NCBI GenBank assembly: GCA_035288405.1
Contig: DATEAK010000162.1
Location: 1 to 6,374, forward strand
Direction of reading: 5' to 3'
Origin: JACPSX01 sp035288405 [NCBI: bacterium]
GTDB lineage: Bacteria > JACPSX01
DNA: 6,374 bases
Both the position numbers and the translations under genes were made by a program. Each line of letters starts with the position of its first letter. Positions within the stretch are counted from its first letter, which is position 1. Positions 34-6,374 of the stretch are shown here, one piece after another. The notes below the pieces were generated by a model. It was not told the DNA's origin and did not search any database. It saw only the letters and a program-made list of their open reading frames with translations.

Positions 34-855
34 GTGTTCGGCAAGAATCTTGCCTTCAAGCCCGAGAGAGGTGACGTGGGCTCTTCTCTGGATTCCATAA
101 GCATCGTCTTGGCCCGCCCCCAAGGTTCCGCCAATGTAGGCGCAGTGGCCAGAGTGCTGGCCAACACGGGGCTTCGCCGCCTGGTTCTCGTAGAGCCTTG
201 CGATTACCTGTGTGACGAGGCCTTCAAAATGGCACTCCGGGCCCGCCCCTTACTCGAAGGGGCGCGGGTGGTTGCAAGCCTCAGGGAAGCCCTGGAAGGA
301 GCGGGATTCGTGGTCGGGACGAGTCGCCGGCTCGGCCAGGCCCGAGGTTCTGGAGCTTCTCCCAGGGAATTGGCGCCAAAGATTTTGGAATTCGTCCCCG
401 GGGTTGAGGTCGCTTTCGTGTTTGGCCCCGAAGACCGGGGTCTGACGAACGAGGAACTCTCCCTCTGCCACGAACTCCTCACGATTCCAACCCATCCAGA
501 CTTTTCCTCTCTGAACCTCGCTCAGGCCGTGATGCTCGTCTGCTACGAGATCTATACGTGCCATCTGCCAAAGGCATCTGCTGCCCCGGCCAGATCCCTG
601 GCCACTTCCCGGGATTTGGAAGAGTTCTATGCGCAAATGGAAAGCACGCTTACCCGCATTGGGTTTCTGAATCCCCAGAATCCAAGCCACATCCTGCGGT
701 CCTTGCGCCGGATCTTTAGCCGAGCTTTATTGGACGAGAGGGAAGTACAGATCTTGCGGGGGATGTTTCATCAATTTGATTGGTATATTTCTTCCGGGCG
801 AGATCGTGAGAATGCCTCCCCGGTCCCGCCTGCTGGTTCGGAGTTTCCCGACTAG
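34..855 (+). CDS. trmJ: TrmJ-like tRNA/rRNA 2'-O-ribose methyltransferase (SpoU/TrmH, SPOUT fold)
   Basis: Predicted SAM-dependent RNA 2'-O-methyltransferase; in the TrmJ family the usual product is Cm/Um at position 32 of the tRNA anticodon loop, in the cytoplasm. The three SPOUT motifs are all visible: motif 1 around residues 34-46 (N34, G36, R40, N44, G46), motif 2 at 128-142 (FVFGPEDRGLTNEEL) and motif 3 at 151-172 (S158, L160, N161, A163, Q164, AV, Y171, E172). Together these build the SAM-binding knot; N34 and R40 are typical of the catalytic/phosphate-binding motif. The 273 residues slightly exceed the roughly 250 usual for TrmJ, with about 20 extra residues at the N terminus. The GTG at 34 has a purine-rich ribosome site at 16-25; a second GTG at 76 (residue 15), preceded by GAGAGAGG at 64-71, would remove most of that extension and is a real alternative. 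The C-terminal part (about 185-260) fits the family's helical region. Assignment to TrmJ rather than another SpoU protein rests on the GPEDRGLTNEE and PDFSSLNLAQAV motifs. The gene converges with the HDOD gene. Confidence 0.87.
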   Translation: MFGKNLAFKPERGDVGSSLDSISIVLARPQGSANVGAVARVLANTGLRRLVLVEPCDYLCDEAFKMALRARPLLEGARVVASLREALEGAGFVVGTSRRLGQARGSGASPRELAPKILEFVPGVEVAFVFGPEDRGLTNEELSLCHELLTIPTHPDFSSLNLAQAVMLVCYEIYTCHLPKASAAPARSLATSRDLEEFYAQMESTLTRIGFLNPQNPSHILRSLRRIFSRALLDEREVQILRGMFHQFDWYISSGRDRENASPVPPAGSEFPD

Positions 856-994
856 GAAGCATTCATGGTGATTCAGAAAATCCCGAAAAGCTGGTTCGCA
901 TTCGGAATGGTTGTGCACTCCGACCTGGAATCACCCACTTCGTTCGATAGATTCCGATCAAGGCGGATCTCCACAGGCTTGAGCTGATCTTGAA
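856..994. other. Convergent intergenic gap between trmJ and the HDOD gene
   Basis: This gap separates two genes that end towards each other, where terminators are expected. I see no hairpin followed by a clear T-run on either strand. Two weak inverted repeats are present: arms at 867-876 and 925-935 (one bulged base, 48-base interior that itself holds a short CATTC/GAATG repeat at 899-909), and arms at 949-956 and 964-970. No gene is supported here. Confidence 0.5.
949..970 (-). terminator. Weak hairpin after the HDOD gene
   Basis: Read on the minus strand, AGATCCG and CGGAATCT form a 7-bp stem with one bulged base and a 7-base loop, starting 24 bases after the HDOD stop codon. There is no U-rich tail, so it is at best a weak or Rho-assisted 3' end structure; it may be chance. 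Confidence 0.22.
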
Positions 995-1858
995 CTACTT
1001 GCCTATTTGATTTTCCTGGAATTCGGGAATTTTGGAGACGGATAGGACAAGGTCAGAGCAGAAAATGTCGAATTCCTTTTCTTCAAGAGAAAGCGATTTC
1101 AGAACGTCTTCCGTTACGGGGTTCAAGAGACCGTCACAGCCGAGGCCAAACCCCATGAGGCTGGTGGCCAGGTTGCTCACATGGACAAAGCTGACGAGCA
1201 TCTTGTTGTCTCTTGCTTGCAGTGGTTCGTGATGGAAACGGATGGCCTCCCGAATGGGGTCCGGAAAGAGCCACCTTTCCGCCGCTTTTTCACCGATTTC
1301 CGTGTGGTCAAATCCGAGAGATTCCTTTTCTGCCCGGACAAAAGACAGTTTCTCTCTTTTTACCCGCCCTTGGATTTCCGCGAAAGAGTTTTCAACCGCG
1401 TTACTGAGGATAATCTTGCCGATATCGTGGAGTAAACCTGCCGTGAAGGCAATATCCTTGAGTGCGGGAGCTTTCTTGACGGCCAAAATTCTGCTGCCTA
1501 AAGCACAGGCTACCGAGTGTTTCCACAATTCCCCGGCGCCGAGCCCATACCCTGAGAGTTCGCGATTATAAATGGATCTGACCGTAGTGGCGATCACCAT
1601 GCTACTGATGGTGCTGAAACCCAGAAGGGAAACGGCCTGATTCACCGAGGAGATTTTCTGGGCAAAACCGTAGAAGGGGGAATTGCACCATCTGAGCACA
1701 TTTGCGGTGAGCGCTTGGTCCGTCGAGATGACCTTTGTGATGTCCTGGACTGAAGCAGAGGGGTCCCTTGTCAGTTCCATGATGCGGTGGACCGACGTGG
1801 GCATCGGAGGCAGCTCCTTTAGGCCATTTAAAATCTCTTCCGTTGATGTCGTGGCCAT
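995..1858 (-). CDS. HDOD-domain signalling protein
   Basis: A 287-residue cytoplasmic protein made almost entirely of one HDOD domain (HD-related output domain, about residues 9-210) with a short C-terminal tail. Family signs are the opening LKELPPMP (residues 13-20), the ISTDQALTANVLRWCNSPFYG stretch (44-64), AVSLLG (75-80), LLHDIGK (142-148) and FHHEP (208-212). HDOD proteins are regulatory outputs in bacterial signal transduction, often linked to chemotaxis, motility, cell-cycle or c-di-GMP networks, and normally not enzymes. Here the HD-phosphohydrolase metal residues look largely kept: H114, H144-D145, H185 and H209-H210, while the last acidic position is N229. No receiver, GGDEF or EAL domain is fused to it, so its input must come from a partner. 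The ATG at 1858 has GAAGGCAGGAG just upstream on the minus strand, giving a usable ribosome site. It stands alone, divergent from the carboxylase cluster, so a functional link to that cluster is not implied. Confidence 0.88.
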   Translation of the reverse strand: MATTSTEEILNGLKELPPMPTSVHRIMELTRDPSASVQDITKVISTDQALTANVLRWCNSPFYGFAQKISSVNQAVSLLGFSTISSMVIATTVRSIYNRELSGYGLGAGELWKHSVACALGSRILAVKKAPALKDIAFTAGLLHDIGKIILSNAVENSFAEIQGRVKREKLSFVRAEKESLGFDHTEIGEKAAERWLFPDPIREAIRFHHEPLQARDNKMLVSFVHVSNLATSLMGFGLGCDGLLNPVTEDVLKSLSLEEKEFDIFCSDLVLSVSKIPEFQENQIGK

Positions 1859-2363: not shown

Positions 2364-4421
2364 GTGCTTTCTCGGGAAATGCGCAGGGTCACGGTTGATA
2401 TCGATACGGGAGGAACCCACACGGATGGATTTTTCGCGCGCGGCGAGGAAGTCGTTCGCGCCAAAGTGGAGACGACTCCTCACGATCTGACCGTTTGTTT
2501 CCAGCAATGTCTCTTGGAAGGCGCCAGACTCCTCGGCTACTCCCAACTCGCCGATCTACTTGCCGACACGGCGGTCGTGCGATTTTCCACCACGATCGGC
2601 ACCAACACCCTGATCCAGCGCAACGGTCCGAAGCTCGGGGTGCTGGTAACTTCGGGATATGAAAATACTCTCTATGCGGCCTCCGCAGCCGATCATCCCG
2701 TCCTTGGGTTTCTGGTCCCGGTGGAGATGGTCGTCGGAATCCGGGGAGAGGTGGGTCCGGCGGGAGGAGTTGCCGCGGAAATCGAGCCGGAGCAAGTCAA
2801 AGGGGCTCTCAAAGAGCTCTTGGAGCGCGGGGCCAGGATGATCGTCGTAAGCTTGAAAGGAGCCTACCGAAACCCTGCTCAGGAGCGACAGGTCAAGGAG
2901 GTGATCCTCTCTCAGTACCCGCGTCATTATCTCGGATCCGTCCCCGTTCTTCTGTCCAGCGAAATCACCGTACGCCCGGGCGAAGCGGAGCGTACGAATG
3001 TGACTCTCCTGAATGCTTACTTTCACCCCAACATGGCTCGCACTCTGTACCGCTCCGAAGATCTTCTGCGGGAGGCGGGTTATCCACGGCCTCTTCTCAT
3101 CGTCCACGCCGATGGGGGGACCGCCCGAGTCGCCAAGACCCGCGCCATCGACACCTACAATTCGGGGCCTGTGGCCGGACTGCATGGGAGCGCCTTCCTG
3201 GCCGAGAACTACGGGCATGAGAATGTGGTGACCTTGGACATTGGCGGCACGAGCAGCGATCTGGGAGTTTTGGACCGGGGAAGACTGCCCCAGGAGTTAC
3301 GTCCGCGGGTCGAGGGGATTCCCATCAATCTCCCTTCCCTTTCTGTCGCCACGTTGGGTGCTGGAGGGGGGTCCATTGCTTCCGTTACAGCGCAAGGATC
3401 GCTGCGGGTGGGGCCAGAGAGCGCCGGAGCCCTGCCGGGTCCTGCCTGTTACGGCCTGGGAGGGGAATCTGCGACGGTCACGGATGCGAATCTTGTTTTG
3501 GGGTTCATGGACCCCGACTATTTTCTGGGTGGAAAAAAGAGGTTGAACCGTCGGCTGGCCGAGGAATCTCTCACACGCAGAGTGGCCGGACCTCTAGGGA
3601 TGTCGCTGGAGAAAGCAGCCGGCCGAGTTATCGAAGAGATGGAAGGAAACGTCATCTCCCGTCTGAAACTCCTCTTGAAGGAGAGAGGGATTTCCGCCGG
3701 CCGGGCCGTCCTCTATGGGTTTGGCGGTGCGGGGGGGCTTCACTGCAGCCGGATTGCCGATGGCTGCGGGATTCCGAGAGTTTATACGTTTTCCCATAAT
3801 CCCGTCTTCTGTGCCTTTGGAGCCTCCACGATGGAGGTGGTCCATGTGTACGAGTCCTATTTTCCGTTCCGTATCGTACCCGGGGCCCCTGAGGATTCCC
3901 TCCGTGACAAATTCAATGAGACGGTCAGGGCGTTGCAGGACCGCGCCTTTCGGGACATGCGTGGGGAGGGATTTCCTCCTGACCAGGTAACCTTTGCTCT
4001 GGAGCTGGAGACGGAGGGCGGGAAAGACGGAGCCAGGCTCACTCCGGTTTCTCGTCTGAACTTGCTCACGGGGGAGGATTTTGCTGCATTCGCCTCTGAG
4101 CTGTCTGACAGTGGTCGTGAGACCGGCAGGAGAGAGATCCGTGTGGAGGTGTTTCGGCTGCGTGCCCGGGCTCCAATTCCCCGTCCCGCTTTGAGGAGTC
4201 TGCCACTGGAATCCGAGGAGAGCTCGGGGGCGCAAAAAGGGGAACGCCCGGTCTTCTGGCTCGGAAAATGGCTGACCACTCCCATTTATTCCCGGGAGAA
4301 GCTGCGACCCGGCAACCGGGTGACGGGACCGGCGATTATCGAAGGACAGTTTACAAACTATGCGGTACCCTCCGGGAAAGTATTTGTGCTGGATTCGCTT
4401 GGGAACGGGGTTCTTGACTAG
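2364..4421 (+). CDS. Hydantoinase A / acetone-acetophenone carboxylase-type ATP-binding large subunit
   Basis: A 685-residue (about 73 kDa) cytoplasmic protein of the hydantoinase A/oxoprolinase family, whose members use ATP to activate a carbonyl or amide substrate, or bicarbonate in ketone carboxylases. The N-terminal domain opens with the phosphate-binding motif DIDTGGTHTD (12-21) and includes TTIGTNTLIQR (76-86). The central Hydantoinase_A domain shows the second phosphate motif DIGGTSSD (292-299), the glycine-rich LGAGGGSI (331-338), PGPACYG (358-364), TDANLVLG (373-380) and FGGAGGLHC (453-461; most relatives have GGAGPLH). The C terminus (GPAIIEG through the VPSGKVFVLD segment) is the normal end of the family, so it is full length and intact. 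It is 65 bases upstream of a small acetone carboxylase gamma-like subunit, which argues for a ketone carboxylase rather than a true hydantoinase or 5-oxoprolinase. The hydantoinase-B-type partner is not in this window. Acetophenone carboxylase subunit 1 is the closest kind by size and gene order, from memory. The substrate is unknown. Confidence 0.85.
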   Translation: MLSREMRRVTVDIDTGGTHTDGFFARGEEVVRAKVETTPHDLTVCFQQCLLEGARLLGYSQLADLLADTAVVRFSTTIGTNTLIQRNGPKLGVLVTSGYENTLYAASAADHPVLGFLVPVEMVVGIRGEVGPAGGVAAEIEPEQVKGALKELLERGARMIVVSLKGAYRNPAQERQVKEVILSQYPRHYLGSVPVLLSSEITVRPGEAERTNVTLLNAYFHPNMARTLYRSEDLLREAGYPRPLLIVHADGGTARVAKTRAIDTYNSGPVAGLHGSAFLAENYGHENVVTLDIGGTSSDLGVLDRGRLPQELRPRVEGIPINLPSLSVATLGAGGGSIASVTAQGSLRVGPESAGALPGPACYGLGGESATVTDANLVLGFMDPDYFLGGKKRLNRRLAEESLTRRVAGPLGMSLEKAAGRVIEEMEGNVISRLKLLLKERGISAGRAVLYGFGGAGGLHCSRIADGCGIPRVYTFSHNPVFCAFGASTMEVVHVYESYFPFRIVPGAPEDSLRDKFNETVRALQDRAFRDMRGEGFPPDQVTFALELETEGGKDGARLTPVSRLNLLTGEDFAAFASELSDSGRETGRREIRVEVFRLRARAPIPRPALRSLPLESEESSGAQKGERPVFWLGKWLTTPIYSREKLRPGNRVTGPAIIEGQFTNYAVPSGKVFVLDSLGNGVLD

Positions 4422-4486
4422 CGCCGTTCCAGGGGTCCACTTGTTGACGAGGGCATTTTTCGGCTGCCTGGTAGGGAGAGCGGCAG

Positions 4487-4834
4487 ATGGCGAATAGAGT
4501 TCGAATCACGGAATATCTGGGTATTGACGTGGACAAGGAGCTGTGGTGCTGTAACCGCTGCGGAAGGGAACTTATCTCGGCTCGGGAAAATTACAAGAAG
4601 GGGTGCCTGGTTTACGAGCGGGATCCGCGCACGATCCACCAGCCTCTCGTGGAGAATGCCGAATACAACTTTGCCCCGGATCCGGAATGGTGTCGGATCG
4701 TGGAATTTTACTGCCCGGGATGTGGGGTTATGGTTGAGAATGAGTACTTACCCCCGGGTCATCCGATCACCCACGATATCGAACTGGATATCGATGCGCT
4801 GAAGGCTTCCGTAAAAAGTCCCGGAGTTTCTTGA
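4487..4834 (+). CDS. Acetone carboxylase gamma-like zinc-site small subunit
   Basis: A 115-residue (about 13 kDa) soluble protein of the acetone carboxylase gamma subunit family. The zinc site is visible as two CxxC pairs, C22-C25 (CNRCG) and C76-C79 (CPGCG), with an extra C21 next to the first. Other family hallmarks are RENYK (33-37), LVYERD (41-46), DPEW (65-68), EFYCPGCG (73-80) and LPPGHP (88-93), ending in an acidic tail before the stop. Acetone carboxylase gamma proteins run to about 165 residues with an N-terminal arm absent here; the short form is more like the 15 kDa subunit of acetophenone carboxylase. In those enzymes the small subunit is structural and helps hold the hydantoinase-A and -B type subunits together. 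The ATG at 4487 is preceded by AGGGAGAG (4473-4480) with 6 bases of spacing. The 65-base gap to the upstream gene has no obvious terminator, so the two are probably co-transcribed. Confidence 0.83.
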   Translation: MANRVRITEYLGIDVDKELWCCNRCGRELISARENYKKGCLVYERDPRTIHQPLVENAEYNFAPDPEWCRIVEFYCPGCGVMVENEYLPPGHPITHDIELDIDALKASVKSPGVS

Positions 4835-4848
4835 TGAAGTTTCCCCCA

Positions 4849-4874
4849 GACCACGATCAACCGTGATCGTGGTC
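4849..4874 (+). terminator. Strong 11-bp hairpin after the small subunit gene
   Basis: GACCACGATCA (4849-4859) and TGATCGTGGTC (4864-4874) pair perfectly around the 4-base loop ACCG, beginning 14 bases after the stop codon. The following bases are only mildly T-rich (CTTCTGTTGT) and there is no clean T-run. It may act as a partial terminator, an RNA-processing or stabilising stem that separates expression of the carboxylase subunits from the transporter, or, as DNA, a protein-binding palindrome. Confidence 0.5.
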
Positions 4875-4918
4875 GGTGCCTTCTGTTGTCGCGCTGACGG
4901 ATCTTTTGCTCGAGAGTA

Positions 4919-5075: not shown

Positions 5076-6047
5076 ATGGATCGGGATCGCAAGATCGCGG
5101 GGGTCATTTGTGCTCTGGTTGCCTTCATGCTTTTTGCAGGAAGGACTTGGGCCCAGGATTTGAAGAAAGCAACGGTTGCAACCACAAGCGCTGGAGCAGC
5201 AGCGGGGCTGATCAGCAAGATCATCAACGACCAAAGGCTCGACAAAAAGCAGGGGCTGGACATTGACTTTAAATACTTCGATCCAGCCAAGGCAGAAGAG
5301 GCGGTCTTCTTTAAAACGGTCGATGCCGGAATCTTTGCTCCCGTGTCGGCGGTGCGAGCCAATCTCAAGGGGCAAATGATCCAGCTTTTCCAGCCGATCA
5401 TGCTGAGCCACTTCTCGATCGTCGTTCCCACCGACTCACCGGTAAAAACCATAGAGGATCTGAAAGGGAAAAAGCTGGGCCTTTTGGCCCGGGTTTCGGC
5501 TATGTACACGTCTTTTGCCACCATTGTAAAGATGCGTGGAGGGGACATAGAGAAAGATTACCAGCTGACCTTCGGCACTCCGCAGGCTTTAAACGCGTTT
5601 CTCCTCCGAAAAGATATGGACGCCATCGGCCAGTTTGACGCATTCACTTCCAAGCTGCTCGCCGCCAACCAAGCCCGGGAAATTGCCACCTTCAACGATT
5701 TATGGCGTAGCGAGACGGGGCAACCCTTGTTGATTATCGGGATTGCGGCGCACAAAGAATGGATCGACAAAAATCAGGATCTGGCCAGGCGCTTGGGGCG
5801 GGCCTTTGCGGACGGGGTACGCATGCTCAAGACAAACCCTGCTAAGGTCATCGAAGAGCAAAAGGAGTTCCTGGGGGTCAAAACGCCTGAGGAAGTGAGG
5901 CTGGTTACTTCCCGAATGCCCGGGATCTTCGTCGAGGGCTGGACTCCGAAGCTCCTGGAGAACACAAAGTTTTTGATCCAGAAAAATGTGGAGATGAAGA
6001 TCCTGGATCAAATGCCCAGGGAAGAATTTTTGCGTAACCTGGAGTAA
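5076..6047 (+). CDS. ABC transporter periplasmic substrate-binding protein (SsuA/TauA/NMT1 type)
   Basis: A 323-residue exported binding protein of the nitrate/sulfonate/taurine (NMT1/SsuA-like) group, which captures a small organic solute in the periplasm and hands it to a membrane permease. A Sec signal peptide is clear: charged start MDRDRK, hydrophobic core about residues 7-21, and a likely cut after A26 (TWA-QD). There is no convincing lipobox. Family signs include IEDLKGKKLG (126-135), the hinge-region motif of these two-lobed proteins, and the alternating beta/alpha pattern on both sides of it. The family covers nitrate, sulfonates, taurine, thiamine precursors, aromatics and more, so the ligand cannot be named. 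The ATG at 5076 has AAGGGGG (5062-5068) at 7 bases. It is 65 bases upstream of a matching permease and 241 bases downstream of the small carboxylase subunit, so it may import the carboxylase's substrate or a related compound. Confidence 0.85.
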   Translation: MDRDRKIAGVICALVAFMLFAGRTWAQDLKKATVATTSAGAAAGLISKIINDQRLDKKQGLDIDFKYFDPAKAEEAVFFKTVDAGIFAPVSAVRANLKGQMIQLFQPIMLSHFSIVVPTDSPVKTIEDLKGKKLGLLARVSAMYTSFATIVKMRGGDIEKDYQLTFGTPQALNAFLLRKDMDAIGQFDAFTSKLLAANQAREIATFNDLWRSETGQPLLIIGIAAHKEWIDKNQDLARRLGRAFADGVRMLKTNPAKVIEEQKEFLGVKTPEEVRLVTSRMPGIFVEGWTPKLLENTKFLIQKNVEMKILDQMPREEFLRNLE

Positions 6048-6112
6048 GTCCCGAAGCCCTATTGCAGCGGGCCCTGGAGTCTCTGCCACCGAGAGATGAC
6101 GACAAGGAACTT

Positions 6113-6374
6113 ATGAACAGGCTGTCCGTAAACCTGATCCGGGGTCTCTCGTTCCTGGCCATCCTTGTGATCTGGTGGATTATTTCCCTTTTCTTCCCCC
6201 CGAGTTTTATTCCGGGACCCGTAATCGTTCTCAAGAAAGTGGCGGGTTTGCTCGTTTCCGGCGAGTTTTTCTTTCACATGTATAAAACCCTGCTGCGGGT
6301 TATCTTGGGATTCCTATGGGCGTTCGTGGTTGGCGCCGTGATGGGGATGGTCATGGGGTTTAACCGGCTGGCGG
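6113..6374 (+). CDS. ABC transporter permease, SsuC/TauC type (5' part, runs off the window)
   Basis: Only the first 87 codons are present; the frame is open to the window edge. The protein begins with a short basic segment (MNRLSVNLIRG), a first membrane helix (about 12-28, containing IWW), the FIPGP turn (32-36) followed by an amphipathic segment ending in SGEFFFHMYKTLLR (49-62), and a second helix (about 63-83, GF-AFVVG-VMGMVMGF). This order (first helix with a W, P-P/S-P turn, L..SGE.....TLLR...GF....G...G...G) is that of the permeases pairing with NMT1/SsuA-type binding proteins, forming the membrane channel for the upstream binding protein. The ATG at 6113 has AAGGA (6104-6108) at 4 bases; a TTG at 6062 in the same frame is less likely. 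An ATPase gene is expected next, outside the window. Confidence 0.83.
   Translation, partial: MNRLSVNLIRGLSFLAILVIWWIISLFFPPSFIPGPVIVLKKVAGLLVSGEFFFHMYKTLLRVILGFLWAFVVGAVMGMVMGFNRLA

What the first reader, a model, noticed from the sequence alone, without database searches (positions are those of the whole stretch)
2364..4834. Hydantoinase-A subunit paired with an acetone carboxylase gamma subunit, but no hydantoinase-B subunit: possible unusual or incomplete ketone carboxylase
Seen: an intact HyuA-type gene directly followed by a small zinc-site gene carrying the gamma-family signature (EFYCPGCG, LPPGHP), then an ABC transporter. Known: acetone carboxylase (three subunits) and acetophenone carboxylase (hydantoinase-A and -B type subunits plus a small zinc subunit) both need a HyuB-type subunit; the acetophenone operon, as I recall, also begins with a 70 kDa HyuA-type and a 15 kDa subunit. 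Inference: either the other subunits lie beyond the transporter, which would make an operon with an embedded uptake system, or this is a reduced two-subunit enzyme with new chemistry. Either version differs from the described acx and apc operons.
Basis: partly seen in the sequence, partly recalled or inferred. Interest (0 to 1): 0.62.

Follow-up and report, generated by a model that had tools for sequence, protein, structure and literature searches.

The report
Front half of ketone carboxylase operon
The two genes are the first two of the four core genes of an acetophenone-carboxylase-type enzyme; the other two are not in this short stretch, so it is most likely a rearranged or cut-off copy of a known kind of enzyme rather than a new two-part one.

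Summary
In detail: an intact HyuA-type gene (2364-4421) is followed by an intact small zinc-site gene (4487-4834), then a substrate-binding protein and a permease cut by the window end; no HyuB and no second HyuA were found in the window. The pair is not odd in itself. The HyuA-type protein is of the alpha-prime (ApcA) class and the small protein of the gamma (ApcB) class of acetophenone carboxylase, whose gene order is alpha', gamma, alpha, beta. In 60 of 62 relatives with 5 kb or more after gamma, a second HyuA and a HyuB follow; the exceptions are a locus with a scaffold gap in alpha and an archaeal assembly whose ApcD-like gene lies on another contig. Unusual is only that a transporter stands where alpha normally stands. 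A perfect 11-bp hairpin and a 241-bp gap after gamma suggest a separate transcription unit. Both proteins keep nearly all residues conserved in their classes, which argues for a working enzyme whose alpha and beta genes lie elsewhere. A free-standing two-subunit enzyme is not excluded but has little support. Low interest.

The parts
2364..4421 (+). HyuA-type kinase subunit of the ApcA (alpha') class, 685 aa, intact
   Evidence: NCBIfam ApcA 487 bits, ApcC 447.5 bits, both below their curated cut-offs; on the side of the HyuA upstream of gamma in the tree; ATP motifs DTGGTHTD, DIGGT, GALPGP and no alpha fingerprint
4487..4834 (+). ApcB-type gamma subunit with four-cysteine site (C22, C25, C76, C79), 115 aa, intact
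   Evidence: NCBIfam ApcB 5.6e-54, 181.5 bits against a cut-off of 250; PDB 5l9w_C 1.9e-46; the four Cys invariant in 82 rows, the window included
4849..4874 (+). perfect 11-bp hairpin, loop of 4, 14 bases after the gamma stop; possible transcript end or operator; no T run
   Evidence: read; folded within 4830-4900 (z -2.12, 5 of 200 shuffles as low); not listed by the terminator scan
5076..6047 (+). NMT1/SsuA-type ABC substrate-binding protein; probably a neighbouring unit
   Evidence: Pfam NMT1 5.1e-14; NCBIfam SsuA_fam 1.2e-19, below its cut-off
6062..6374 (+). start of an ABC permease, cut by the window end
   Evidence: NCBIfam ABC_perm_U 1.8e-8, TauC 4.9e-6, both below cut-off; no Pfam match

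Best explanation
The pair is apcA-apcB of an acetophenone-carboxylase-type (ApcABCD) ATP-dependent, biotin-free carboxylase. Shown: family, class (alpha' and gamma), intact reading frames, conserved ATP motifs and cysteines, and that relatives carry alpha and beta after gamma. Inferred: the alpha (ketone kinase) and beta subunits are encoded elsewhere in this genome, either beyond the transporter or unlinked, and the four assemble as in the known enzyme. There alpha' is thought to phosphorylate bicarbonate and alpha the enol of the ketone. The ABC transporter is most likely a neighbouring unit whose link to the carboxylase is unproven.
For: Gamma: 5l9w_C 1.9e-46 and ApcB 181.5 bits. HyuA type: a branch with SH-aLRT 97 separates 43 rows (all 39 upstream HyuA in the tree, 3 rows of other position and the window) from the 38 HyuA after gamma, 4 general HyuA and 2 others. 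The alpha fingerprint, as a loose pattern, is absent from the window; it is in 45 of 76 HyuA after gamma and 1 of 76 before it, the window being one of those 76. Order: 60 of 62 gamma ORFs with 5 kb or more downstream have a HyuA and a HyuB after them. Conservation: window alpha' agrees in 91 of 94 columns, and gamma in all 28 columns conserved at 95% or more. GC3 is 60-71% in all six genes. Split precedents: L038 has alpha', gamma and alpha, and an ApcD-like beta (42% to beta of such clusters, 24-27% to general HyuB) stands alone on another contig of that assembly; L127 holds two ApcD-like beta genes with no HyuA labelled beside them.
Against: No alpha or beta was seen, and nothing beyond the window is held. 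Neither protein reaches NCBIfam's equivalog cut-off, so the substrate need not be acetophenone. By single-sequence phmmer the HyuA type scores slightly higher against Apc alpha (438.7 bits) than alpha' (410.3 bits), against the tree and NCBIfam. The tree is a quick one with long-branch warnings. The residues proposed for the bicarbonate site of A. aromaticum alpha' are not kept, in the window or in most alpha' read. In no relative examined did a transporter stand in place of alpha.
Confidence: 0.75

Rival explanations
1. Assembly artefact or chimera: the real contig continues into apcC and apcD, and the transporter was joined at the gamma end, near the 11-bp palindrome.
For: The break lies where relatives continue into alpha, beside a perfect hairpin. 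L002 and L003 show how assemblies break in this cluster: a 100-N gap inside alpha in L002, and a contig end 156 bases after gamma in L003, with a HyuB at the start of another contig of that genome.
Against: No ambiguous letters in the window; similar GC3 on both sides; the substrate-binding protein gene begins behind a plausible ribosome site. Reads are not available.
Confidence: 0.1
2. Relic: a rearrangement or loss removed alpha and beta, and the pair is a remnant on its way out.
For: No credible alpha or beta sequence remains in the 241-bp gap or elsewhere in the window; the transporter stands at the alpha position.
Against: Both frames are intact and keep nearly all conserved residues, unlike decaying genes.
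Confidence: 0.1
3. A free-standing two-subunit alpha'-gamma enzyme, for example an ATP-dependent bicarbonate or small-substrate kinase with its own uptake system.
For: A hairpin and gap close the unit after gamma, and an uptake system follows. Apc hydrolyses ATP with bicarbonate as sole substrate (PMC5214803, section 5). Two of the 30 different genomes searched for HyuB had no match: G002 (L002) and G004 (L004).
Against: Both of those two show the start of an alpha gene after gamma: L002 has a scaffold gap inside it, and the L004 contig ends 1,325 bases after gamma, so these assemblies are cut rather than reduced. Among the 62 gamma ORFs with 5 kb or more downstream none stands without a following HyuA. 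The three enzyme branches described in PMC5214803 section 7 all have a beta-type (HyuB) subunit.
Confidence: 0.05

Closest known systems
Acetophenone carboxylase, ApcABCD(E), Aromatoleum aromaticum (PDB 5l9w)
   Same: Gene order HyuA type then gamma; gamma aligns over nearly its whole length; ATP motifs and the four cysteines are present
   Different: Alpha, beta and epsilon are not in the window; an ABC transporter follows gamma; both proteins fall below the NCBIfam equivalog cut-offs
Acetone carboxylase AcxABC (PDB 5svb, 5m45)
   Same: HyuA-type and gamma-type subunits are homologous
   Different: Weaker matches (gamma 7.1e-9, HyuA type 1.2e-77); gamma is 115 aa here and 168 aa there; gamma is the third gene there (PMC5214803 section 7)
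Caprolactamase CapAB, hydantoinase, 5-oxoprolinase
   Same: HyuA-type kinase subunit
   Different: These pair with a HyuB-type subunit and have no gamma; the window HyuA type is of the alpha' class

Membership tests
Acetophenone carboxylase type (Apc) | Alpha'-class HyuA subunit encoded just before a short gamma subunit | tested here: met
   phmmer alone leans the other way on alpha against alpha'
Acetophenone carboxylase type (Apc) | Gamma with four conserved cysteines and without the roughly 50-residue N-terminal extension of Acx gamma | tested here: met
   length rule from PMC5214803 section 7
Acetophenone carboxylase type (Apc) | Alpha (ApcC) and beta (ApcD) genes present | tested here: inconclusive
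   absent from the window; the rest of the genome is not held
Acetophenone carboxylase proper (equivalog of the A. aromaticum enzyme) | NCBIfam equivalog cut-offs for ApcA and ApcB | tested here: not met
   487 of 1250 bits and 181.5 of 250 bits: Apc-like, not the acetophenone enzyme itself by that rule
Acetophenone carboxylase proper (equivalog of the A. aromaticum enzyme) | ATP-dependent carboxylation of acetophenone | not testable with these tools
   needs enzyme assay
Acetone carboxylase (Acx) | Gamma of about 168 aa as third gene, after the two large subunits | tested here: not met
   gamma is 115 aa and second, behind one HyuA-type gene
Two-subunit hydantoinase/oxoprolinase (HyuAB) | HyuB next to HyuA and no gamma subunit | tested here: not met

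The most novel reading that the evidence does not exclude
The alpha' and gamma subunits form a free-standing two-protein ATP-dependent enzyme, for example a carboxyphosphate-forming module, fed by its own ABC transporter, without any HyuB-type partner.
Probability: 0.05. Interest if true: 0.6.

Novelty: new member of a known kind. Interest (0 to 1): 0.17.

Why it matters
As it stands it adds one Apc-like gene pair with an unusual downstream neighbour. If alpha and beta were truly missing from the genome, it would test what alpha' and gamma can do without the rest of the core, which the one characterised enzyme cannot show.

Tried and rejected
Placing the organism: TrmJ was sought only in samples of one phylum (99 and 148 genomes, overlapping); the best matches there are 48-51% identical. 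The best two lie in an order of which 8 genomes are held; 7 of those 8 have general HyuA proteins at 31-34% identity and 0 of 8 a gamma match (with no positive control among them). The organism was not identified. Transporter link: an HMM of the window SBP and its kin found no SBP in the 80 loci. In a sample of 297 genomes of that phylum only one, G058, had close matches, seven at 36-44%; of seven stretches fetched there, one carried HyuA and HyuB. A query of the class of G058 found only that genome and no match. No gamma relative in viral contigs. Of 79 plasmid records with a gamma match three were looked at and show the four core genes. The glutamate and lysine proposed for the bicarbonate site of Apc alpha' (E248, K281) are N and D in the window; but K is found in only 4 of 69 readable alpha' and E in 4 of 35, so this was not used for or against. 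Papers: PMC5214803 abstract and sections 5, 6, 7 read; PMC8453981 and PMC4729919 passages only; everything else search listings. The searches (25 of 29 papers listed) gave no title or abstract start that describes an Apc cluster with a transporter inside or an alpha'-gamma pair alone; those papers were not read.

Limits of the counts: gene labels come from HMMs of my own on stop-to-stop ORFs, many over-extended. One search kept 80 of 101 relatives, all found through exact peptide patterns. The tree took its two main groups from L001 to L044 only (rows of other position from all loci; ORFs of 580 aa or more). One search counted HyuA ORFs of 550 aa or more. HyuB was sought in 30 different genomes of the 80 loci, not in all.

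Full report
What is there. The window holds a TrmJ-type gene (34-855, +), an HDOD gene (995-1858, -), the HyuA-type gene (2364-4421, +), the small gene (4487-4834, +), a substrate-binding protein (5076-6047, +) and the start of a permease (6062 to the end, +). No HyuB and no second HyuA were found.

What the two proteins are. The small protein is 115 aa and matches the small subunit of acetophenone carboxylase (PDB 5l9w chain C, 1.9e-46) far better than that of acetone carboxylase (7.1e-9); NCBIfam names it ApcB, 181.5 bits, under its cut-off of 250. The HyuA-type protein scores best with the NCBIfam model ApcA (487 bits) and next with ApcC (447.5), both far below cut-off. phmmer against the PDB ranks the two chains the other way round: 438.7 bits for the 732-residue chain the depositors call gamma subunit, which I take as ApcC or alpha, and 410.3 for the 658-residue chain they call alpha, which I take as ApcA or alpha'. 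Subunit names here follow PMC5214803: apcA codes for alpha', apcB gamma, apcC alpha, apcD beta (section 7).

The tree favours alpha'. With 87 rows, a branch with SH-aLRT 97 separates 43 rows (all 39 HyuA in the tree that lie upstream of gamma, three of other position, and the window) from the 38 HyuA that lie after gamma together with four general HyuA and two others. It is a quick tree with long-branch warnings. The alpha fingerprint that the structure paper gives (R/KERiDsxG, next to the beta interface) is absent from the window; as a loose pattern it is found in 45 of 76 HyuA after gamma and in 1 of 76 before it, the window being one of the latter. So the window protein is most likely alpha', the subunit that does not touch beta in the structure.

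What relatives look like. A scan of one genome per species gave 101 relatives of the small protein, of which 80 loci were kept. They hold 81 gamma ORFs. Of 62 with at least 5 kb of sequence after gamma, 60 have both a HyuA and a HyuB there. The two exceptions have a HyuA but no HyuB next to it. L002 has a 100-N scaffold gap inside alpha, and its genome has no HyuB match. L038, from a Thaumarchaeota assembly, has alpha', a URO-D-like gene, gamma and alpha; its genome has four HyuB matches, and the one I fetched, 684 aa and alone among other genes on another contig, is ApcD-like: 42% identical to the beta of such clusters against 24-27% to five general HyuB. Of the 19 ORFs with less sequence, 11 have both, 5 have the HyuA only, and 3 end within 156 bases of gamma. 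HyuB was sought in 30 different genomes of these loci: 28 have it, and G002 (L002) and G004 (L004, contig cut 1,325 bases after gamma) do not. Draws of 297, 400 and 396 genomes from three phyla gave 12, 11 and 12 gamma places (some the same as before), all followed by a HyuA within the 1.5 kb held (54, 59; 81, 82). Three annotated plasmid records of 79 with a match show the four core genes, one with a uroporphyrinogen decarboxylase family gene between alpha' and gamma. In none of these did a transporter stand in place of alpha.

Is the pair working? The window alpha' agrees with its class in 91 of the 94 columns that are at least 90% conserved among 72 alpha' proteins, and gamma keeps all 28 columns conserved at 95% or more, the four cysteines among them (82 rows, the window included). 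All three ATP motifs named in the structure paper have counterparts (DTGGTHTD, DIGGT, GALPGP). Codon third-position GC is alike in all six genes, 60-71%. This is what a gene pair in use looks like and argues against decay.

The transporter. Between gamma and the substrate-binding protein are 241 bases with a perfect 11-bp hairpin 14 bases after the gamma stop. It has no T run, and the terminator scan does not list it, so it may end the transcript or bind a regulator; either way it favours a separate unit. That is inference. The substrate-binding protein and permease are of the sulfonate/taurine type by matches below cut-off. No protein of this SBP family was found in the 80 loci.

Mechanism, as far as it can be said. 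In the characterised enzyme, alpha and alpha' are presumed ATP-dependent kinases; the authors tentatively assign the ketone to alpha and bicarbonate to alpha', and call direct participation of gamma unlikely. By homology the window codes for the bicarbonate-side kinase and the zinc subunit. The residues named for the bicarbonate site (E248, K281) are N and D here, as in most alpha' proteins that could be read, so that assignment is not firm for the wider family.

Verdict. The finding is real but most likely ordinary: the first half of an Apc-type gene set with an unusual neighbour. The missing half cannot be looked for, since no sequence beyond the window is held. The most novel reading, a two-subunit enzyme, is not excluded and has little positive evidence.

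Noticed in passing
57 of the 80 loci, e.g. L043 14674-15567, L039 10329-11273, L016 6899-7840: By an iterated HMM of my own, 57 of 80 loci carry a URO-D/MtaA-like gene in or beside the cluster: 44 after beta, 11 between gamma and alpha, 1 between alpha' and gamma, 1 before alpha'. 36 score 100 bits or more; 21 score less and are doubtful: of 13 members scanned, 5 reach Pfam URO-D's cut-off, and all five of the low scorers with no NCBIfam match had no Pfam family match above cut-off either. L043's copy matches NCBIfam ApcE (8.6e-111); its predicted model (pLDDT 90.7) matches the solved ApcE 9fou (Z 41.3), then an MtaA-like methyltransferase and UROD structures (Z 22-26). So the epsilon subunit has a URO-D-like fold and probable homologues may be commoner than the 2017 paper says; the ApcE structure was released in 2025.
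   Followed up: partly
L038 5873-12485 and L110 6730-8781: A natural split: alpha', URO-D-like gene, gamma and alpha on one contig, and a stand-alone ApcD-like HyuB on another contig of the same archaeal assembly.
   Followed up: partly
L127 5626-7692 and 11644-13716: Two ApcD-like HyuB genes (56-57% to the beta of L007, same genome) in 14.7 kb without any HyuA labelled beside them.
   Followed up: partly
window 4849-4874: Perfect 11-bp inverted repeat with a 4-base loop just after the gamma gene and no T run.
   Followed up: partly
G058 (L103-L109, L131-L137): One genome gave 114 first-look candidates for the window's substrate-binding protein (7 scored) and 28 for HyuA: possibly a large expansion of both families.
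   Followed up: partly
window 34-1858: A TrmJ-type methyltransferase gene and a divergent HDOD gene lie upstream; in samples of the one phylum tried, TrmJ is at best 48-51% identical.
   Followed up: partly
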